From Candidatus Thorarchaeota archaeon (GTDB lineage: Archaea > Asgardarchaeota > Thorarchaeia > Thorarchaeales > Thorarchaeaceae): a stretch of 57,507 bases of DNA. The position numbers and the translations under genes were made by a program. Shown here piece by piece: positions 19,968 through 36,568 of the stretch. Position 1 is the stretch's first letter. Every line of letters begins with the position of its first letter. The notes beneath the pieces were generated by a model that did no database searches, was not told where the DNA came from, and saw only the letters and a program-made list of their open reading frames with translations. Where the stretch lies: the NCBI GenBank assembly GCA_016840385.1, contig JAEOSL010000010.1, positions 1 to 57,507 of the forward strand. The letters run 5' to 3'.

Positions 19968-20075
19968 GTTTCTCCATCACTAGTAATTTCTCGTGATTTT
20001 TGATATATTGGTATATTTGTTGTACACTAGTTAGCTTTTTCTCTACTTCCGACAGCCAAAATACTCGTGACTCCA

Positions 20076-21452
20076 ATGGCTGACAAACTCTTTGGAACTA
20101 CCGGTGTACGAAAAGTCTATGGAACAGAGTTCGATCTTGAGATGGCACTACATCTCGGAAAGGCTCTAGGTACGTTAGTTGGTGAAGGTACTGTGCTCCT
20201 AGCAAGAGACGCTAGAACAACTGGTCTGATGGTTGCAGATGCACTCTCAGCAGGAATAATGTCAACAGGAGTTAGTGTTGTACGGGCGGGAATCATACCT
20301 ACCCCCACCTTGGCATATTTGACCATGAAAAGAGAATACGAAGCGGGATTGATGGTTACAGCATCTCACAATCCTCCAGAATACACTGGAATCAAGTTTT
20401 GGTCAAAGAGTAGTATGGGCTTTACATCAGACGAAGAGAGAAAGTTAGAGGAGATTTATGAATCAAAGAAATTCACTGCAGCACCATGGGATAGACTTGG
20501 AAAAGAACTGACTATAGAAACCGCAGTAGATGAGCATATCACTGGTATCTTGGAACAGTGTGATGCAGACCTAATTCGTTCAAAGAACTTCACTATCATA
20601 GTTGACCCAGGAAATGGAGCTGGATGTGTACTTGCACCGTATCTGATTCAGAAACTCAGTAAGAAAGTTGTCACAATAAATGGGCAACCAGATGGTCATT
20701 TTCCAGGAAGGAAGTCTGAACCTGAGGAAGAGACCCTAGGTGACCTCATGCAGATGGTGAAGGAAACTGGAGCGGACTTGGGTATTGCACATGATGGAGA
20801 TAGTGACCGGGTTGTCTTTGTCACCGAGAATGGAGAAGTAATTCGTGGCGATAGAACAATTGCACTTCTTGCTCAGGATTATCTCATGACTTCAAAGCCG
20901 GAAACCATTGTAACCACTGTAGATAGCTCCCTTGCCTTGGATGAAACAGTTGAGGAAGGGAACGGTAAAACCATCAGGACTCCTGTAGGAGATATTCAGG
21001 TTGCAATAAAGGTCAAGGAAACAGGAGCAGTCATGGGTGGAGAAGCATGCGGAGTTTTCATTCTACCAGAATTTCATCTCGCACCGGAACCATTTCTCGC
21101 AGCATGTAGAGTTCTAGAGAGAATGGCACGAACGGGTAAGAGCTTTGGTGAACTCATCAAAGACATTCCAATTTATCCAATTAGTAAAGCCAAAGTAAAA
21201 TGTCCTAATGAGAAGAAATCAGCAGTAATGAAGGAATTGAGCAAGACTCTACCCAAGGGACTGAAGGATGTAGTTGATGTTATCACAGTTGATGGCATTG
21301 GAGTGACTCTGAAAGATGGTTGGATACTAGTGAGACCCTCTGGTACTGAACCTGTGATTAGAATAACCTGCGAAGGACCTACTAAAGAGCTAGTTAGTAG
21401 AACACTTGATGAGGCAAAGGCCATTGTTGAGAAAACTATCAAATCAGCATAA
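20076..21452 (+). CDS. glmM: Phosphoglucosamine mutase / phosphomannomutase (archaeal GlmM/ManB type)
   Basis: A 458-residue alpha-D-phosphohexomutase from ATG 20076 (a GTG three codons earlier is less typical). The N-terminus is FGTTGVR, the phosphoserine loop is TASHNP with Ser97, the metal loop is DGDSDR, and the C-terminal phosphate-binding loop is RPSGTEP. It interconverts hexose or hexosamine 6- and 1-phosphates. Archaeal enzymes of this type make glucosamine-1-phosphate for UDP-GlcNAc. That would feed the BshA-like enzyme encoded 1.2 kb downstream, an inference from proximity. Confidence 0.85.
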   Translation: MADKLFGTTGVRKVYGTEFDLEMALHLGKALGTLVGEGTVLLARDARTTGLMVADALSAGIMSTGVSVVRAGIIPTPTLAYLTMKREYEAGLMVTASHNPPEYTGIKFWSKSSMGFTSDEERKLEEIYESKKFTAAPWDRLGKELTIETAVDEHITGILEQCDADLIRSKNFTIIVDPGNGAGCVLAPYLIQKLSKKVVTINGQPDGHFPGRKSEPEEETLGDLMQMVKETGADLGIAHDGDSDRVVFVTENGEVIRGDRTIALLAQDYLMTSKPETIVTTVDSSLALDETVEEGNGKTIRTPVGDIQVAIKVKETGAVMGGEACGVFILPEFHLAPEPFLAACRVLERMARTGKSFGELIKDIPIYPISKAKVKCPNEKKSAVMKELSKTLPKGLKDVVDVITVDGIGVTLKDGWILVRPSGTEPVIRITCEGPTKELVSRTLDEAKAIVEKTIKSA

Positions 21453-21528: not shown

Positions 21529-21939
21529 ATGACCGACGAGAAAAAGGAACTCGAAGACAGTATCCTTGAAGAATTCGAGTGGGCCTTACAAGATCCCAAT
21601 AGCGAGAAAATACGCCAACTTGGTGAAGTAGTTAGTATCATCACAACCAAGTTAATGGAAGCTATTGATGCTCTCCAAACGACAGTGAATGGGCTCCAAG
21701 CTGAAGTTAATGGTTTAGATTCAAAGATCGACTCGCTCTCAAGTCGTGTAGCCAGTGGTGCAACAGCAACTCCAGGAGCCGCAGCAGCACCTGCAGCAGC
21801 AGATGGCGGCGAACCTATGGCAGGATTGGAAAAACCAGCAGCAGATCCACCACCAGCAGCAGGCGGTGGAATGAGCATGATGGGAGAACTGAAACAGCTA
21901 CTCGCAGCTAGAAGACAAAAAGCGGACGGCGCCGAGTAG
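21529..21939 (+). CDS. Small coiled-coil protein with Ala/Pro linker and basic C-terminal helix
   Basis: A 136-residue protein. Residues 1-75 form an acidic helix then a heptad-patterned coiled coil (ALQTTVNGLQAEVNGL). Residues 78-112 are Ala/Pro/Gly-rich and flexible. The last 20 residues (MSMMGELKQLLAARRQK) form an amphipathic basic helix. Coiled coil, Pro-rich linker and short C-terminal helix recall eukaryotic actin-regulator subunits, but these segments are low in information and the likeness may be chance. It converges with the BshB-like gene with 2 bp between them. Confidence 0.6.
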   Translation: MTDEKKELEDSILEEFEWALQDPNSEKIRQLGEVVSIITTKLMEAIDALQTTVNGLQAEVNGLDSKIDSLSSRVASGATATPGAAAAPAAADGGEPMAGLEKPAADPPPAAGGGMSMMGELKQLLAARRQKADGAE

Positions 21940-21941
21940 TC

Positions 21942-22595
21942 CTATATCAACCGCTCAACACTATTTTCCTTGTAAAAAGGACCTGCATGTTCAGGCAGTG
22001 TTATTGTGAATGCTTCAGCACGCTCACACTTTGCTTGAGCACCTCTAAGACGGGTTCTGGTATCGTACAGTTTCTCATAGAAGAAATCAGCTTTCTCAAT
22101 CTGTGATTTGTGTTCTTTTAGTGCACCAAGACCGTATTTGTACGTATCAGTTATGTCAACATACACATGAGGTCTGGATATCATTGTGTTGATTTCCATA
22201 TTGTAAATTCGTTGAACTCTGTGAGCGTCATCAAAGATTGTTGTATGGGACGCCCATTCCACTGCATCGAACACGATTTGTGCGCATTGTTGATGATTGA
22301 TGTTATAATCACCTGAAAAATGAGTGATCACGATTTCGGGCCGAGTCTTGAGAATAGCTCCTACTACTTCATTTCTCATACTCGTATCAATTGCAAAATC
22401 ATCCCGCTCACTGAGAAAGAGATTCCTAACACCAAGAATGCCACAGGCTGTTTTCATCTCTTCATTTCTAGTTGCATTTCCAGTCATACAATGTACATCG
22501 ACAGGAATTCCCAAATCACCGTGTTTCCGTATTGTACCGCCAGCTCCCAAACTTTCATCATCAGGATGCGCAACTACAACAAGAATGGAGTCCAT
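21942..22595 (-). CDS. bshB: BshB-like LmbE/PIG-L family deacetylase
   Basis: A 217-residue zinc deacetylase. ATG 22595 gives the normal LmbE N-terminus MDSILVVVAHPDDE, with ligands His10 and Asp13 and a third His in NINHQQ; longer frames add an unrelated leader. In bacillithiol synthesis BshB removes the acetyl group from GlcNAc-malate. LmbE enzymes also act on other GlcNAc conjugates, so the role rests on its divergent pairing with the BshA-like gene (105 bp between starts) and BshC beyond it. Confidence 0.8.
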   Translation of the reverse strand: MDSILVVVAHPDDESLGAGGTIRKHGDLGIPVDVHCMTGNATRNEEMKTACGILGVRNLFLSERDDFAIDTSMRNEVVGAILKTRPEIVITHFSGDYNINHQQCAQIVFDAVEWASHTTIFDDAHRVQRIYNMEINTMISRPHVYVDITDTYKYGLGALKEHKSQIEKADFFYEKLYDTRTRLRGAQAKCERAEAFTITLPEHAGPFYKENSVERLI

Positions 22596-22700
22596 AACAT
22601 GCACGATGATGACACCACTAATCAAGTTTTGGAATAGTTTGATGTTCAAACCATTTCCCTTAAAGGGGACTAATTCTCCCTCTAACAGAAGGTGACTAAT

Positions 22701-23864
22701 TTGCGTATTGGGGTTAATCTCTATCCTTCAGTAGGTGGCAGTGGATATCTCGCCACTAGATTGGGTCAACACCTAGCTGGCAAGGGCCATGTCTTACACT
22801 TCATTACATATCAGAGACCTTTCTCGATGATGTGGCAACAGACAAAGGGACTCCACGTAGATCTTGTGGACAGGTTCGATTACCCGCTGTTTAAAGCAGT
22901 GGGACCACCTTATGCAATGGCACTAACATCAAAGATAATCAAAGTAGCAAAGGCATCTGAATTAGATTTGATTCATTCCCATTATGCAATTCCTCATGCT
23001 ATGGCAGCCTACATGGCTCGGGAGATCATCAAAATTCCCTATGTTGTCACATTGCACGGCTCAGATGTTCATACTCTAGGACTTGACCCCGCGTACAAGC
23101 CAGTTGTGAAACATACTGTTGAACAGGCGGATGCAGTGACTGCAGTTTCGGAGTTTCTGAAGAAGAAGGCTCACGAGGAACTTGGTATTGAGAGAGATAT
23201 TCATGTTATTCCTAACTTCATCGATACTGGTACTTTTTCACAAGTAACAGGTATCAGATTAGTCGTGGAGAGTGGATGTGTTTCACTAAGAGATGAAGAA
23301 GAAGCCTACGAGATCTGCCCCGATGAAAAAATAATCCTTCATGCATCGAACTTCAGACCAGTCAAGCGTGTTACTAAACTCATTGAAGCAATGAGAATTG
23401 TCGTTGATAGCTATCCCAAAGCTAGACTCGTTATTGCAGGAGATGGACCTACACGAATTGAAGTCGAACGCAAAATTGAGGAACTCAAATTATGCAATAG
23501 TGTTCACTTACTTGGAATTAAGAGCAATATGCAGGAGATAATGTGCTCTGCAGATGTCTTCGCTCTGAATTCTACATTGGAAGGAATGCCACTAGTACTC
23601 CTAGAGGCAATGGCATGCAAACTGCCTGTAATCACAACACCAGCAGGAGGAATTCCAGAACTGGTTCGTCCAGGTTTGGATGGAGTAGTGACTGAGGGGT
23701 ATGATGTAGAGGAATATGCAGCAGAATTACTCGAGCTTCTCAATAATGATAGTAAGAGGAAGAAACTCGGGCAGGCAGGAAAGGCCAGGGTTGAGGATAA
23801 ATTCTCAGCAGAGAAGATAGTATCGAAGTACGAGAAAGTCTTCGAAGAAGTAGTAGGAAAATGA
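22701..23864 (+). CDS. bshA: BshA-like GT4 glycosyltransferase
   Basis: A 387-residue GT-B glycosyltransferase. TTG 22701 gives MRIGVNLYPSVGGSG, matching the usual BshA start, with aaggtga upstream; GTG 22692 is an alternative. It shows HYAIPHAMAAYMA and VTLHGSDVHTLG, both typical of BshA, and the GT4 donor motif EGMPLVLLEAM. A BshA enzyme joins GlcNAc from UDP-GlcNAc to L-malate, the first step of bacillithiol synthesis. Linkage to bshB and bshC supports that over a generic GT4 role. The next gene starts 16 bp downstream. Confidence 0.8.
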   Translation: MRIGVNLYPSVGGSGYLATRLGQHLAGKGHVLHFITYQRPFSMMWQQTKGLHVDLVDRFDYPLFKAVGPPYAMALTSKIIKVAKASELDLIHSHYAIPHAMAAYMAREIIKIPYVVTLHGSDVHTLGLDPAYKPVVKHTVEQADAVTAVSEFLKKKAHEELGIERDIHVIPNFIDTGTFSQVTGIRLVVESGCVSLRDEEEAYEICPDEKIILHASNFRPVKRVTKLIEAMRIVVDSYPKARLVIAGDGPTRIEVERKIEELKLCNSVHLLGIKSNMQEIMCSADVFALNSTLEGMPLVLLEAMACKLPVITTPAGGIPELVRPGLDGVVTEGYDVEEYAAELLELLNNDSKRKKLGQAGKARVEDKFSAEKIVSKYEKVFEEVVGK

Positions 23865-23880
23865 TTGGAGGTTACTAACT

Positions 23881-25596
23881 TTGGCTCCCAGCGTCAATAT
23901 GATTTTACAAAATTACATCTGGAAGGGAGAGAATGAGAAACTAGCTGAACGACTGTACAGCTCCCCTCCTATCACCCTTGATGGATTTGCAAAGCGAGCA
24001 ACTATCCTGAGAGAGGAATATACCAAAACATTGTGGCATATCGATGAGAAAATGGACCTCCTCGAGAAAGCTTTGCTCTCATCAAACAAAGAACTGGGAA
24101 GTCTCACACCTGAGGTGAAAGCATCAATCATTTCTTTGAAACAAGGAGCTGTAGAATCAGCCCATCAAACGGCAGTACTGGGTGGACCAGCTTACATTCT
24201 CAACAAACCAATAACTGCGAAACGTATCGCAGAATTGTGTGCAGAAAAGGACGTCAATCTTTCAACCTACTTCTGTGTAGCTGACTACGACGTTGTCCAA
24301 CCAGAATTGACCCATATCCGTGTTCCAGTCTTCGGGAAGGGTGGAACATTAGTGAGTATACCAGTTCCACCAGGGTACGAACATTCACCAGTCAATGTAC
24401 TTCCACTACCGGGAAGTGAATGGTATAGCCAGATAGAGGAAGAGATTCGCAGTAGTTACAGACCTATGTTCAAACCACTTGAAAGAGCATCCCGTAGCTT
24501 ATTTGAAGAGAGACTCGAACAGGCACTCTCAATCACCAGATGGAGCTATAACAACTCATCAACATTCGGAGAATGGGTAAAACGAATTCTGGGCAGATTG
24601 TTCAATGTCGAAGGAAATCTTGGAGTCCCGCTTGTTTCAGCTTCGCATCCAAAGATTCGAGATCTTCTAACAGAAGGTTTGGAGTTTCTCCTTGCAAGAG
24701 AGAATCGTGACCGATTCCTGAAAACAGTAGATGAAGTTACGACTGAGATCACTGATGCAGGTTTCAGTCCAAGCATGAGAAGAAGAGGTCAAGACTATGT
24801 TCCGTTCTACTATGAGTGCACAAATAAAGAGTGCAATAGTGCACGAACAGAACTTCATTATATGGACCAAGGGAATATTGCATTACTAACTGGCAAATGT
24901 CCCACTTGTTCTGAACCTATAGAGATTGAAACACCTGCAGATAGTCCTTACTTGGGAGAAGTTGCAAAGAATCTCTCTCTAAGAGTTGATTCAAGACAGA
25001 TGGTTATTGATACGATTATCCCAACAATTGTTCATGTCGGAGGACCCGGTGAAGCAGCATATTACAGTCAAGTCATTCCAGCAGCGAAGGCAATGTCGGT
25101 TCCGTTTCCGTTATTTGTTAGATATCCAAGAGTGTACTTCAACACACCATGGAACGAGAGTTTGGCACGAAAATTGGAAGAGAAAGGAAATACAGTCCTT
25201 CACAGAGGAGATATGTTTAGTCTCAGTGGGAAAGTTTCTCGATTTAGAAAGAAGAAACGTTTCGACGAAATGAATGAAGCACTATCAAATCTAAGCAGTC
25301 TGATTCTAGAAACTCACTCCAAACTCAATCAAGAACATAAAGAACTTGAAGCTGAGATTGAGGGTAAGAAAGGAAAAGAAGCAGAAACCTTGCTCAATCA
25401 CAAGTTCGATTTGGAACGATATCTGAGTTGGACTTTTGGTCAATTCGCAGAAGGCAAGCTAGGTCAAGAGTCATCATGGTCATGGATCGAGTGGGCAATA
25501 AACGCAGGATTTGGAAATCTCTTCGGACCATACGAGAGAGCCTATGTTGGACCAATGAAAAATGGTGCAACAATGTTCGTGAATTTTGCTGTATAG
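23881..25596 (+). CDS. bshC: BshC-like cysteine-adding enzyme with zinc-ribbon insert
   Basis: A 571-residue protein from TTG 23881 with GGAGG eight bases upstream. It has the BshC signatures HQTAVLGGPAYI (95-106, like the family's Gln/Gly/Pro-Leu-Tyr loop), an ADYD loop (134-137, where bacterial BshC has EDHD), and HVGGPGEAAYY (385-394). A coiled coil lies near 455-505. Between 313 and 343 it carries a zinc ribbon (C-x4-C and C-x2-C), at a place where I recall none in typical bacterial BshC. BshC adds cysteine to GlcN-malate, the final step. The divergent loop means the amine or thiol substrate could differ. Confidence 0.75.
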   Translation: MAPSVNMILQNYIWKGENEKLAERLYSSPPITLDGFAKRATILREEYTKTLWHIDEKMDLLEKALLSSNKELGSLTPEVKASIISLKQGAVESAHQTAVLGGPAYILNKPITAKRIAELCAEKDVNLSTYFCVADYDVVQPELTHIRVPVFGKGGTLVSIPVPPGYEHSPVNVLPLPGSEWYSQIEEEIRSSYRPMFKPLERASRSLFEERLEQALSITRWSYNNSSTFGEWVKRILGRLFNVEGNLGVPLVSASHPKIRDLLTEGLEFLLARENRDRFLKTVDEVTTEITDAGFSPSMRRRGQDYVPFYYECTNKECNSARTELHYMDQGNIALLTGKCPTCSEPIEIETPADSPYLGEVAKNLSLRVDSRQMVIDTIIPTIVHVGGPGEAAYYSQVIPAAKAMSVPFPLFVRYPRVYFNTPWNESLARKLEEKGNTVLHRGDMFSLSGKVSRFRKKKRFDEMNEALSNLSSLILETHSKLNQEHKELEAEIEGKKGKEAETLLNHKFDLERYLSWTFGQFAEGKLGQESSWSWIEWAINAGFGNLFGPYERAYVGPMKNGATMFVNFAV

Positions 25597-25631: not shown

Positions 25632-26903
25632 TTACCCCAAATCCTTTGCTAGGAGTGTGCCTAGTTTTTCAATTCCTTCTGCAATCACTTCTTTTGTTGC
25701 ATAGGAGAATCCTAGACGCATTGTATTTGCTTCGGGTACACTGGGAATGATATCATTTCCATCCTCACTGATTTTGTGACCTGTGATTGGGTAGAACGGA
25801 GCTCCTGGCACGTAAAGCAGGTCATTTGGAATAGCAACCCGCTCCATGAATTCACTAGAGTTGAAGTTCTTATCATCACTTTTCCACCAGATGAAGAAAC
25901 CCCCTTGCGGATCTGTTCTTTCACCACCGGGGAAGAATTCATCCATTGCTTTAGCCATTGCCTCATAGCGTTCTTGATACGCGGGAATACTGACCTTCAT
26001 GGCTTGGTCAATATACTTGGTGTAGTATTCATCAAGAATACGCTGAACTAAAGATGTTGTACATAGGTCAAGATAGCCCTTGTCCTTGAGAACTTGATCA
26101 CGGACATTTTCAGGCATAACAGAATAACCCACTCTCAGGACAGCAGCTTCCTTACTGCTTGTGCCAAGGTAAGCCACTCGTTTATTTTCCTTGTCTAGTG
26201 TCTTGATTGCTTTCGGAGTATCCTTGAATTGTATCTCTGCGTAAGCGGAGTCCTCCAATAGTAGGATGTTGTGACTCTCACAGATATCATAGAGGGCTTG
26301 ACGTCTATTCCATGGCAATGTAGTACCTTTTGGATTGTCACTGTCAGGAACTACATAGAGAAGATCAGGGACCTTTCCAAATTTGATCTTTGAAAGATGA
26401 ATGGCTCGTTCTACTTGGTTAGGAATGATACCATCTTGATCGGTTTCTACTATTAGAACTCTAGCTCCGAGTTTTACAGCAGGAACAAGAAAGCCCAAGT
26501 ATGCGGGGGATGGTGTGATGATGACATCACCAGGATCAATCAATGTATCAAGTAAAGCATACAGAGCCTGTTGAGAACCATTGGTGATTGATACGCACTC
26601 CCATTCATCCTCACAATTGATAGGAATTTCACGAACTTCATGGAGCCTTTTTGCAAGAGTTTTGCGGAACCAGGGTTGACCTCCTGTGGGACCATAATTC
26701 AGATCGTCAAGTGCCATTTTAGAATCAGCTTTGTACCTCTCACTGATATCAGCTAAAATATCAGCAAAGATATCGGTAGGCATGATGCCAGGTTTCCCAC
26801 CAGCAAAATAGTACTTGACATTATACTTGAGCAAGGATCTAATTTGAGACTCCTCAATGAAAGACGTCCATGTAGCAAAGCTATAACCACGTTCATTCGC
26901 CAA
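25632..26903 (-). CDS. PLP-dependent class I/II aminotransferase
   Basis: A 423-residue fold-type I aminotransferase. SITNGSQQAL binds cofactor phosphate, PAYLGF precedes the ring-stacking strand, PDSDNPKGT holds the Asn contact, LLEDSAY the Asp, and GTSSKEAAVLRVGY the Schiff-base Lys followed by the Arg-type phosphate contact. The layout fits the 2-aminoadipate/aromatic/MocR-like aminotransferase group found in archaea, but substrate cannot be set from sequence. Start is TTG 26903 with ggag upstream. It stands alone, convergent with bshC. Confidence 0.85.
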   Translation of the reverse strand: MANERGYSFATWTSFIEESQIRSLLKYNVKYYFAGGKPGIMPTDIFADILADISERYKADSKMALDDLNYGPTGGQPWFRKTLAKRLHEVREIPINCEDEWECVSITNGSQQALYALLDTLIDPGDVIITPSPAYLGFLVPAVKLGARVLIVETDQDGIIPNQVERAIHLSKIKFGKVPDLLYVVPDSDNPKGTTLPWNRRQALYDICESHNILLLEDSAYAEIQFKDTPKAIKTLDKENKRVAYLGTSSKEAAVLRVGYSVMPENVRDQVLKDKGYLDLCTTSLVQRILDEYYTKYIDQAMKVSIPAYQERYEAMAKAMDEFFPGGERTDPQGGFFIWWKSDDKNFNSSEFMERVAIPNDLLYVPGAPFYPITGHKISEDGNDIIPSVPEANTMRLGFSYATKEVIAEGIEKLGTLLAKDLG

Positions 26904-34234: not shown

Positions 34235-36568
34235 ATGTCAAACGTGCGACCGGGCTCAAAAAAACCGCGTAAAACCGGAAGTAGTGGTGATGAAACTCCA
34301 ATCTATACCAGTTTACTATTCGAGCTCAATCTTAGGGCGCAAGATGCTGTGAGAGATTTTTCCCTTCATGATATAGATGACAAAGAAGGGATTGAGCTGA
34401 AACGGATTGCGATGCATAGAGCTTTCACTGAACTCTATGACACAGTAGCTTCTTTCAGTCAACAAATCATGGTTGGAGATTTTGATTTGTCATATCTGCG
34501 CAATAGAGTAGCGCAGAGTGAGGGTGAAACAAAGGAGCAACTCGAAGCAGCTCTTGAAGAACTTGAAGATCAGACCGAGAGAGATCTCGCAGATGTCTGG
34601 ATGGCAAGAGTCATGGCATGGTTACATACAGCAGCCGCAGCAAGTGGACCCTTTGTTGAAAACGAACATGAGGATATTCAACGGAATGCATCAAAGTATC
34701 TTGCTAAGGTTTACACAATGCTTGAACGTCCATTCTCAGCAGTTGCTAAGAAGGTAGATGGGACCCAAAAGCTTCGCAGAGTTGCCTTAGGTCTACAAGC
34801 CCACAGTCTAATGAAAGAATCCTTAGGTGAAGATGATGCAGAACTCACATCAATTCTAGGTAAGAACAAGAGTGCAGAAGCTGAATTCTATGACGAGTTT
34901 CTCAACGAGCTAGTAGGTCAAGAGAGCACATTCAGACAAGCGTTCAATCCATTTGATGAACTGATTTGGCGTGATATTCTTAGTTCATTTATCTTTGAAC
35001 AAGCAACTGACCTATACAATGAAGCAATTCCATTGTTCAAGAAGACACGAGAAAACAAAGAGAAGCTTTCAACCATCAAGTCATGGAAAAGTAATACCTC
35101 AGGACTTAGTGAAGTATACCTCGCAATGACGTACACAGATATTGCTGATGCGCAGATGAGAGCTGGAAATCTGGAAGATGCTTCCAAGTTGTATATGATA
35201 GCTTCTGATGCCTTTGGTAGAGCAGAGAAATGTTTCAGGGAAGTCATTGCCCTACAACCAAATGCTGAACAAAGCAGGCTTGACAAAGAGCAGAAGAAAG
35301 CTCAAAGTTTGTTTTGTAGTGCAGAGTCAAGTGTACGGGTTCTCACAGAGTTACTAGAAGTGAATAACAAAACCGAAGCAAAGAAGGTCCTGAAAGAGAT
35401 CTTCAAGAATCTTAGAAAGGCAGAGAAATTAGCAAAGACCAGAGAATTGACTGGTGCCATTCAGGGAGACCTGAAGACGTATTCTTTTGTTCAAGACCTC
35501 CTCAAGAAAAGGGGCGATGATGATATCAGCGGTATCATAGCTCAGATAGCGTTTGCAAAGGACTTGAGAAAGACCGCATTGATTCAAGACATCAGCAAGG
35601 CAATGGACGAAACCAAAATTGAGATGACTGAGAATCCATCAGACTCGTTGGATTCCATTAGAGAAGGTCTCAACACTCTTGGTATTCTTCTCAGTTTAGA
35701 GATAGAAGATGCAGAAGTTGGAGACCTACGTAATAGGACCCTTGCACTACTGAACAACGTAAAGTACATGATTCAATTCCAGCAGAGCTCAAACCTAGAA
35801 CAGGGCGTAAAATTCATACTATCCAGAATTCTTGAGAATCTTCATGCTGAAGAGGCTGCATCATACTACAAGATTGTTGGGGATAATGAATCAGCTCTAG
35901 AACTTGTGGACCTTGGAAAACTTGCACTAGCCACAGCATTTGCAGCTGAGGCTCAAGCATATTCAAGACAGTCCGAACAATTAGCTTTTCGCGCTCAGAT
36001 TGAACGTTTGAACACATTCCAAAAACTGGCGGACGAGTTGGCAATTCTAGAAGAGGATGATCCAATGGAGGACGCTCTGGAAATTCATGATGGAACCATA
36101 ACCAAATTAAAGCAGACAGTGGCATCATTCGAGGCGGCTGCAAATGAGCTTGATAGTGTGAAAGGTGAAACCATCAGGACTAAGAATAATGTTGATGCCC
36201 AGGTGAAACAACTCCAAGGTGTTGTGATGAAGTTCAAGGGAGACCTCTCTCGACTGGAAGGTGCAAAGAATGACTTCATGGCTGAATACATGTTCATGAA
36301 GGGAGAGAAGTCCAAGGCAAAAATACACTACTCGGATGCTAACGACCATTTGAGAGAAGCAGTTGGTAACTACACTACAGCTGCACAGGTGTTCCAACAG
36401 GTTGGAGATGGCCAATCAGCTCAGAATGTTGATACTAAAGCAAAGACAACAGACTTACTTGCACGAAGCATCTGGGATAACAGACACCGTATAGACAGAG
36501 ACCAAGATCCCACTGTTAAAGGTGAAACAGAGTTAGCAGCACTCTATCTTGGTGCCGGTGGACAATAG
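34235..36568 (+). CDS. Large all-helical TPR-like protein
   Basis: A 777-residue protein from ATG 34235 with aggag upstream. A basic, Ser/Gly-rich N-terminal tail (1-25) is followed by continuous amphipathic helices. Residues about 300-350 fit TPR units (YTDIADAQMRAGNLEDASKLY, then ASDAFGRAEKCFREVIALQP). Further helical pairs and a coiled coil (about 600-700) follow. No membrane segment or enzyme motif. Such proteins act as scaffolds. It is convergent with ATPase subunit I (13 bp apart), so linkage to the ATPase is positional only. Confidence 0.65.
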   Translation: MSNVRPGSKKPRKTGSSGDETPIYTSLLFELNLRAQDAVRDFSLHDIDDKEGIELKRIAMHRAFTELYDTVASFSQQIMVGDFDLSYLRNRVAQSEGETKEQLEAALEELEDQTERDLADVWMARVMAWLHTAAAASGPFVENEHEDIQRNASKYLAKVYTMLERPFSAVAKKVDGTQKLRRVALGLQAHSLMKESLGEDDAELTSILGKNKSAEAEFYDEFLNELVGQESTFRQAFNPFDELIWRDILSSFIFEQATDLYNEAIPLFKKTRENKEKLSTIKSWKSNTSGLSEVYLAMTYTDIADAQMRAGNLEDASKLYMIASDAFGRAEKCFREVIALQPNAEQSRLDKEQKKAQSLFCSAESSVRVLTELLEVNNKTEAKKVLKEIFKNLRKAEKLAKTRELTGAIQGDLKTYSFVQDLLKKRGDDDISGIIAQIAFAKDLRKTALIQDISKAMDETKIEMTENPSDSLDSIREGLNTLGILLSLEIEDAEVGDLRNRTLALLNNVKYMIQFQQSSNLEQGVKFILSRILENLHAEEAASYYKIVGDNESALELVDLGKLALATAFAAEAQAYSRQSEQLAFRAQIERLNTFQKLADELAILEEDDPMEDALEIHDGTITKLKQTVASFEAAANELDSVKGETIRTKNNVDAQVKQLQGVVMKFKGDLSRLEGAKNDFMAEYMFMKGEKSKAKIHYSDANDHLREAVGNYTTAAQVFQQVGDGQSAQNVDTKAKTTDLLARSIWDNRHRIDRDQDPTVKGETELAALYLGAGGQ

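What the first reader, a model, noticed from the sequence alone, without database searches (positions are those of the whole stretch)
21942..25596. Complete bacillithiol-type (BshA-BshB-BshC) gene set in an archaeal context
Three neighbouring genes match all three steps of bacillithiol synthesis. A UDP-GlcNAc:malate-type GT4 has HYAIPHA and VTLHGSDVH. An LmbE deacetylase has AHPDDE. A BshC-like cysteine ligase has HQTAVLGGPAYI and HVGGPGEAAYY. A hexosamine-phosphate mutase that could supply the sugar lies 1.2 kb upstream. Bacillithiol is best known from Firmicutes and several other bacterial groups; archaeal low-molecular-weight thiols are poorly known. That this cell makes a GlcN-malate-cysteine or related thiol is inference.
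Basis: partly seen in the sequence, partly recalled or inferred. Interest (0 to 1): 0.85.

Follow-up and report, generated by a model that had tools for sequence, protein, structure and literature searches.

The report
Bacillithiol-type thiol genes in Thorarchaeia
A Thorarchaeota genome, from the Asgard archaea related to eukaryotes, carries a complete and conserved gene set that most likely makes bacillithiol, a protective thiol known from bacteria, with a cysteine-adding enzyme of a distinct archaeal type that probably binds zinc.

Summary

Against: BshB and BshC miss NCBI's equivalog cut-offs; in 47 genomes of the class, none has BrxA/B and none a YpdA over its cut-off. Asgard BshA and BshC homologues were noted in 2020; a 2025 survey denied a complete archaeal pathway. 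New variant of a known kind.

The parts
21942..22595 (-). BshB-like PIG-L/LmbE deacetylase, 217 aa from the likely ATG start (the ORF is open to a TTG at 22649)
22692..23864 (+). BshA, UDP-GlcNAc:L-malate glycosyltransferase, 390 aa
   Evidence: TIGR03999 377.1 bits, above the cut-off 273.7; best PDB match 5d00 BshA, E 8e-78; groups with BshA in a tree
23881..25596 (+). BshC, cysteine-adding enzyme, archaeal type, 571 aa; 16 bp lie between the BshA stop and its start
24817..24909 (+). Ribbon cysteines of BshC: C313, C318, C340, C343 (probable zinc ribbon)
   Evidence: Alignment and counts: both cysteine pairs in 46 of 61 archaeal-type rows, C340 in 61 of 61, no complete pair in 15 of 15 bacterial-type rows. 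That it binds zinc is inference
20067..21452 (+). Archaeal phosphoglucosamine mutase GlmM; could supply the UDP-GlcNAc precursor
   Evidence: TIGR03990 519.6 bits, cut-off 439; upstream of the cluster in most Thorarchaeia loci that reach that far
21529..21939 (+). Conserved 136-aa ORF, coiled-coil by appearance, between GlmM and BshB; function unknown
   Evidence: No Pfam match over a cut-off; homologue at the same place in Thorarchaeia loci
25632..26903 (-). PLP-dependent aminotransferase of the kynurenine/2-aminoadipate type, convergent with BshC
   Evidence: PF00155 85.4 bits; best PDB matches 1x0m, 3aov; next to BshC in 35 of 35 Thorarchaeia loci that read past BshC and in 5 of 8 loci of the Hodarchaeales-type group

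Best explanation
The divergent pair bshB / bshA-bshC is a bacillithiol-type biosynthesis cluster. BshA joins GlcNAc from UDP-GlcNAc to L-malate, the PIG-L enzyme removes the N-acetyl group, and BshC links cysteine to the freed amine, giving Cys-GlcN-malate (bacillithiol) or a close derivative that serves as a low-molecular-weight thiol of the cell. Shown here: the genes, their families, their predicted folds, their linkage and their spread. Inferred: the reactions, the product, zinc binding and the thiol's use.
Against: BshC and BshB fall below the NCBIfam equivalog cut-offs (75.5 against 265.8; 78.9 against 182.5). A histidine of Bacillus BshB (position 110 of 2ixd) is Asn98 here. Bacilliredoxin BrxA/B is absent (0 of 47) and no YpdA reaches its cut-off (0 of 47; lesser matches of general flavin reductases in 47 of 47). 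Only 5 of 47 genomes of the class have the more specific PF04978 S-transferase at E up to 1e-8, though 41 of 47 have the broad DinB_2 family. No thiol has been measured; [quoted passage not shown]
Confidence: 0.77

Rival explanations
1. The cluster makes a related cysteinyl-glucosamine thiol, not bacillithiol itself: another acid in place of malate, or a later change made by a neighbouring enzyme such as the aminotransferase.
For: The aminotransferase gene is the fixed neighbour of bshC in Thorarchaeia (35 of 35 loci that read past BshC) and in 5 of 8 Hodarchaeales-type loci, whose genomes lack BshA at E up to 1e-60. The window's BshC is only 17-23% identical to six bacterial rows. N-methyl-bacillithiol shows that variants exist (PMC6282198, passages).
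Against: BshA is at equivalog level and its invariant residues are shared with bacterial BshA. The aminotransferase also occurs in 23 of 117 genomes with neither BshA nor BshC, against 88 of 110 with one, and lies elsewhere in the genome in other groups (for example G012 and G059, places), so it is not tied to the pathway.
Confidence: 0.16
2. The BshC-like enzyme is not a thiol synthase here but cysteinylates a sugar of a glycan or lipid, as might be the case in the BshA-less modules.
For: In six Asgard genomes a GT2 enzyme, a PIG-L deacetylase and a BshC of the archaeal type sit together without BshA, and some Thermoproteota copies lie among glycosyltransferases.
Against: In Thorarchaeia the partner is BshA, a malate-using enzyme by family, and the two genes are 16 bp apart in the window.
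Confidence: 0.05
3. The genes are bacterial contamination of the bin, or a recent bacterial gift.
For: One Asgard lineage (G059-G065, G067, G171) has a bacterial-type BshC; seven of these were put in the tree and group with bacterial rows.
Against: The window's BshC lies in a Thorarchaeia clade (100/100) inside an archaeal clade separate from bacteria; the gene order is the same in many separate genomes, mostly with archaeal GlmM upstream.
Confidence: 0.02

Closest known systems
Bacterial bacillithiol pathway (BshA, BshB1/BshB2, BshC of Bacillus)
   Same: Same three enzyme families; BshA at equivalog level; BshC and BshB folds match the Bacillus structures best.
   Different: All three genes form one divergent cluster; BshC is of a deep archaeal clade with a four-cysteine ribbon; no BrxA/B, and no YpdA over its cut-off, in 47 genomes of the class.
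Mycothiol pathway (MshA, MshB, MshC)
   Same: Same logic: glycosyltransferase, PIG-L deacetylase, cysteine ligase with a class I synthetase core (general knowledge).
Class I lysyl-tRNA synthetase (1irx; archaeal as recalled)
   Different: Only residues 3-323 of 507 of the synthetase align. Without the ribbon columns the profile signal falls to 5%, so the sequence evidence rests mainly on the ribbon.
Asgard BshA/BshC homologues of the 2020 review (PMC7278568)
   Same: The review lists 39 archaeal InterPro hits for each of BshA and BshC, most in Asgard archaea (passages).
   Different: The passages seen give no archaeal deacetylase, no gene cluster and no separate BshC type; the whole text was not read.

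Membership tests
Bacillithiol biosynthesis pathway | BshA at curated equivalog level | tested here: met
   TIGR03999 377.1 bits, cut-off 273.7
Bacillithiol biosynthesis pathway | BshB at curated equivalog level | tested here: not met
   TIGR04001 78.9 bits, cut-off 182.5; TIGR04000 63.4, cut-off 195.25
Bacillithiol biosynthesis pathway | BshB fold and metal-site residues | tested here: met
Bacillithiol biosynthesis pathway | BshC at curated equivalog level | tested here: not met
   TIGR03998 75.5 bits, cut-off 265.8
Bacillithiol biosynthesis pathway | BshC family PF10079 and fold | tested here: met
Bacillithiol biosynthesis pathway | The genes occur together across the lineage | tested here: met
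   All three in 33 of 38 Thorarchaeia loci, the other five cut or partly unread; both BshA and BshC in 39 of 47 genomes of the class
Bacillithiol biosynthesis pathway | Bacilliredoxin BrxA/B and reductase YpdA (accessory) | tested here: not met
   PF06491 0 of 47; TIGR04018 over its cut-off 0 of 47
Bacillithiol biosynthesis pathway | Bacillithiol in the cell | not testable with these tools
   Needs thiol labelling and mass spectrometry
Mycothiol pathway | MshA and MshC at curated level | tested here: not met
   MshA model 71.9 bits, cut-off 462.5; the only NCBIfam match of the ligase at E up to 0.01 is BshC
Class I lysyl-tRNA synthetase | Whole synthetase, including the C-terminal part | tested here: inconclusive
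   Alignment ends at residue 323 of 507 of 1irx

The most novel reading that the evidence does not exclude
Archaeal zinc-ribbon BshC is the older form of the family. The cysteine ligase arose in archaea from a class I lysyl-tRNA synthetase-like enzyme whose metal-binding ribbon it kept; bacterial BshC lost the ribbon. Archaea then built several cysteinyl-aminosugar thiols with it: bacillithiol where BshA is the partner (Thorarchaeia, some Bathyarchaeota and other Asgard lineages), and undescribed relatives where a GT2 or another enzyme replaces BshA (six Loki-like genomes, Hodarchaeales-type genomes, Nitrososphaera-type archaea).
Probability: 0.25. Interest if true: 0.85.

Novelty: new variant of a known kind. 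Interest (0 to 1): 0.64.

Why it matters
Archaeal low-molecular-weight thiols are poorly known (PMC7278568, abstract passage). A 2025 survey states that no archaeon has the complete bacillithiol pathway (PMC12719100, passages); its BLAST limits (identity above 25%, Chlorobaculum queries) would probably miss the archaeal type, since the window's BshC is 17-23% identical to six bacterial BshC rows (Chlorobaculum itself was not among them). If the Thorarchaeia cluster works, bacillithiol is an ordinary metabolite of a lineage close to eukaryotes. It also bears on an old gap: the BshC reaction had not been shown in vitro as of a 2015 review (PMC4360819, passages). Residues kept between two deep clades (Q96, K109, D137, G388, Y394, P410) and a probable metal site point to what to mutate. 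Nitrososphaera-type archaea (soil ammonia oxidisers, some in culture, as I recall) carry relatives of this BshC with no BshA seen nearby, so the question of unknown archaeal thiols can be tested.

Tried and rejected
Fusion of BshC in one genome: a 1236-aa open frame holds an unread stretch, so it is no evidence of a fusion; it was left out of the trees.

Aminotransferase as a pathway enzyme: kept only as a suggestion, since it also occurs in 23 of 117 genomes without BshA or BshC.

Sulfolobales as owner of the Thermoproteota copies (my first guess): dropped; the archaeal names among the best hits of one copy are mainly Nitrososphaera and other Thaumarchaeota.

In print: nine searches listed no paper whose title or abstract start tells of an archaeal bshABC cluster, and none holding both BshC and lysyl-tRNA synthetase (0 papers). 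Searches listed only 20 of 86, 15 of 23 and 5 of 509 papers. I read passages of six papers, none whole. The library lacks most subscription papers, and the BshC structure paper is not held.

Limits: the BshC tree is midpoint-rooted and warns that long branches meet (thermo group and bacterial side). Whole-genome BshA absence rests on E up to 1e-60 with at most 8 candidates scored per genome. For Thermoproteota copies only the fetched stretches were checked for BshA. The Thermoproteota count (8 of 398) is from a sample. Trees used 76 of 117 distinct BshC rows and 53 BshA rows plus 3 outgroups. Group labels g3, g4, g5, g8, g9, thermo and canonAsg are mine; 'Loki-like' is a guess.

Full report
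What is there. The window is a contig whose BshC is 83-89% identical to the three nearest proteins that NCBI names, all Candidatus Thorarchaeota. It carries an archaeal GlmM (20067-21452), a 136-aa ORF, a PIG-L deacetylase on the minus strand (21942-22595 from the likely ATG), and on the plus strand a GT4 glycosyltransferase (22692-23864) followed after 16 bp by BshC (23881-25596), then a convergent PLP aminotransferase (25632-26903). ARAGORN found no tRNA and Rfam no match at its gathering scores.

Linkage. A scan of one genome per species gave 50 loci: 38 of the Thorarchaeia type, 2 Bathyarchaeota and 10 bacterial (two of the 38 are contigs of one genome). BshB, BshA and BshC lie together in the window's order in 33 of the 38, BshC being cut by the contig end in three of these; in four others the contig starts inside BshA or BshC, and one has an unread stretch. 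The aminotransferase follows in all 35 loci that read past BshC. The two Bathyarchaeota have BshB, a gene of 314-317 aa, BshC and convergent BshA. In L040, the one examined, the gene between is an amidohydrolase, and two genes beyond BshA match DinB_2 and the mycothiol-S-transferase family.

Spread. Of 227 Asgard genomes, 104 have a PF10079 match (94 over the cut-off) and 93 a BshA match at E up to 1e-60 (89 over the cut-off); 87 have both and 110 at least one. In the window's class (47 genomes) the numbers are 41 BshC, 43 BshA, 39 both and 45 at least one. Of the 17 genomes with BshC but no BshA, three (G026, G216, G217) have contig-end or assembly faults near the gene (in G217 a cut BshA is seen). 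The other 14 fall in two groups: eight of Hodarchaeales type (one member and its nearest relatives are named Heimdall- or Hodarchaeota) and six that are Loki-like by my guess. In a Thermoproteota sample 8 of 398 genomes had a match. One such copy has 720 homologues at E up to 0.001, of which the best 120 were listed; those with archaeal names are mainly Nitrososphaera, called hypothetical protein.

Use of the thiol. The S-transferase family PF04978 at E up to 1e-8 is found in 17 of 227 Asgard genomes, all 17 among the 110 with BshA or BshC (chance 2e-6 if genomes were independent, which they are not); 5 of the 17 are in the window's class. The broad DinB_2 family is in 41 of 47 genomes of the class (40 over the cut-off). 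BrxA/B is in none of 47, and YpdA reaches its cut-off in none of 47; all 47 have lesser matches, as do all 14 control genomes, which I read as general flavin disulfide reductases. The aminotransferase is in 88 of 110 genomes with BshA or BshC and in 23 of 117 without.

Mechanism. Most likely UDP-GlcNAc plus L-malate gives GlcNAc-malate (BshA), which is deacetylated (BshB) and joined to cysteine (BshC). These are the reactions of the bacterial pathway as described in PMC7278568 and PMC4360819 (passages). How BshC activates cysteine is open: its activity had never been shown in vitro according to PMC4360819 (2015).

Against the literature. The 2020 review gives 39 archaeal InterPro hits each for BshA and BshC, mostly Asgard, and no detection of BSH. 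A 2025 paper reports that no archaeon has the complete pathway. NCBI already labels many of these proteins 'bacillithiol biosynthesis BshC', so the name is not new; the complete cluster, the separate type and its spread are what this report adds, as far as the searches in Tried and rejected show.

Noticed in passing
L136, L137, L139, L143, L147, L148 (Asgard genomes, Loki-like by guess): Six loci carry a GT2-like gene, PIG-L and BshC in a row (ribbon seen in the five read far enough), with no BshA found in the genome (GT2 family checked by Pfam in L137 only): a possible unknown cysteinyl-aminosugar product.
   Followed up: partly
L141, L142, L144, L145, L146 (Hodarchaeales type): Zinc-ribbon BshC convergent with the same aminotransferase as in the window, with neither BshA nor BshB in the neighbouring genes; three of these genomes (G050, G051, G055) have a PF04978 S-transferase.
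   Followed up: partly
L175 (Nitrososphaera-type by its best named hits) and its tree relatives L172-L174: Zinc-ribbon BshC, whose relatives are annotated as hypothetical protein, with a PIG-L gene next to it (L175) or two genes away (L172-L174) and no BshA in the fetched stretch.
   Followed up: partly
L040:12892-13915 (Bathyarchaeota): Two adjacent DinB/mycothiol-S-transferase-like genes directly beyond bshA.
   Followed up: partly
L092:9667-10026: A VOC/glyoxalase-fold gene beside BshC; ORFs of about the same size (118-120 aa) lie beside BshC in several related loci. FosB-type thiol transferases share this fold (recalled).
   Followed up: no
G583, G619, G460: A second, short CysRS-like gene (394-417 aa) besides the normal one.
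   Followed up: no
window 21529-21939: A conserved ORF, coiled-coil by appearance and Pro/Ala-rich, between GlmM and BshB with no family match over a cut-off.
   Followed up: partly
window 34235-36568: A 777-aa protein with a weak C-terminal MIT-domain match (20.4 bits, cut-off 30), next to V-ATPase genes.
   Followed up: no
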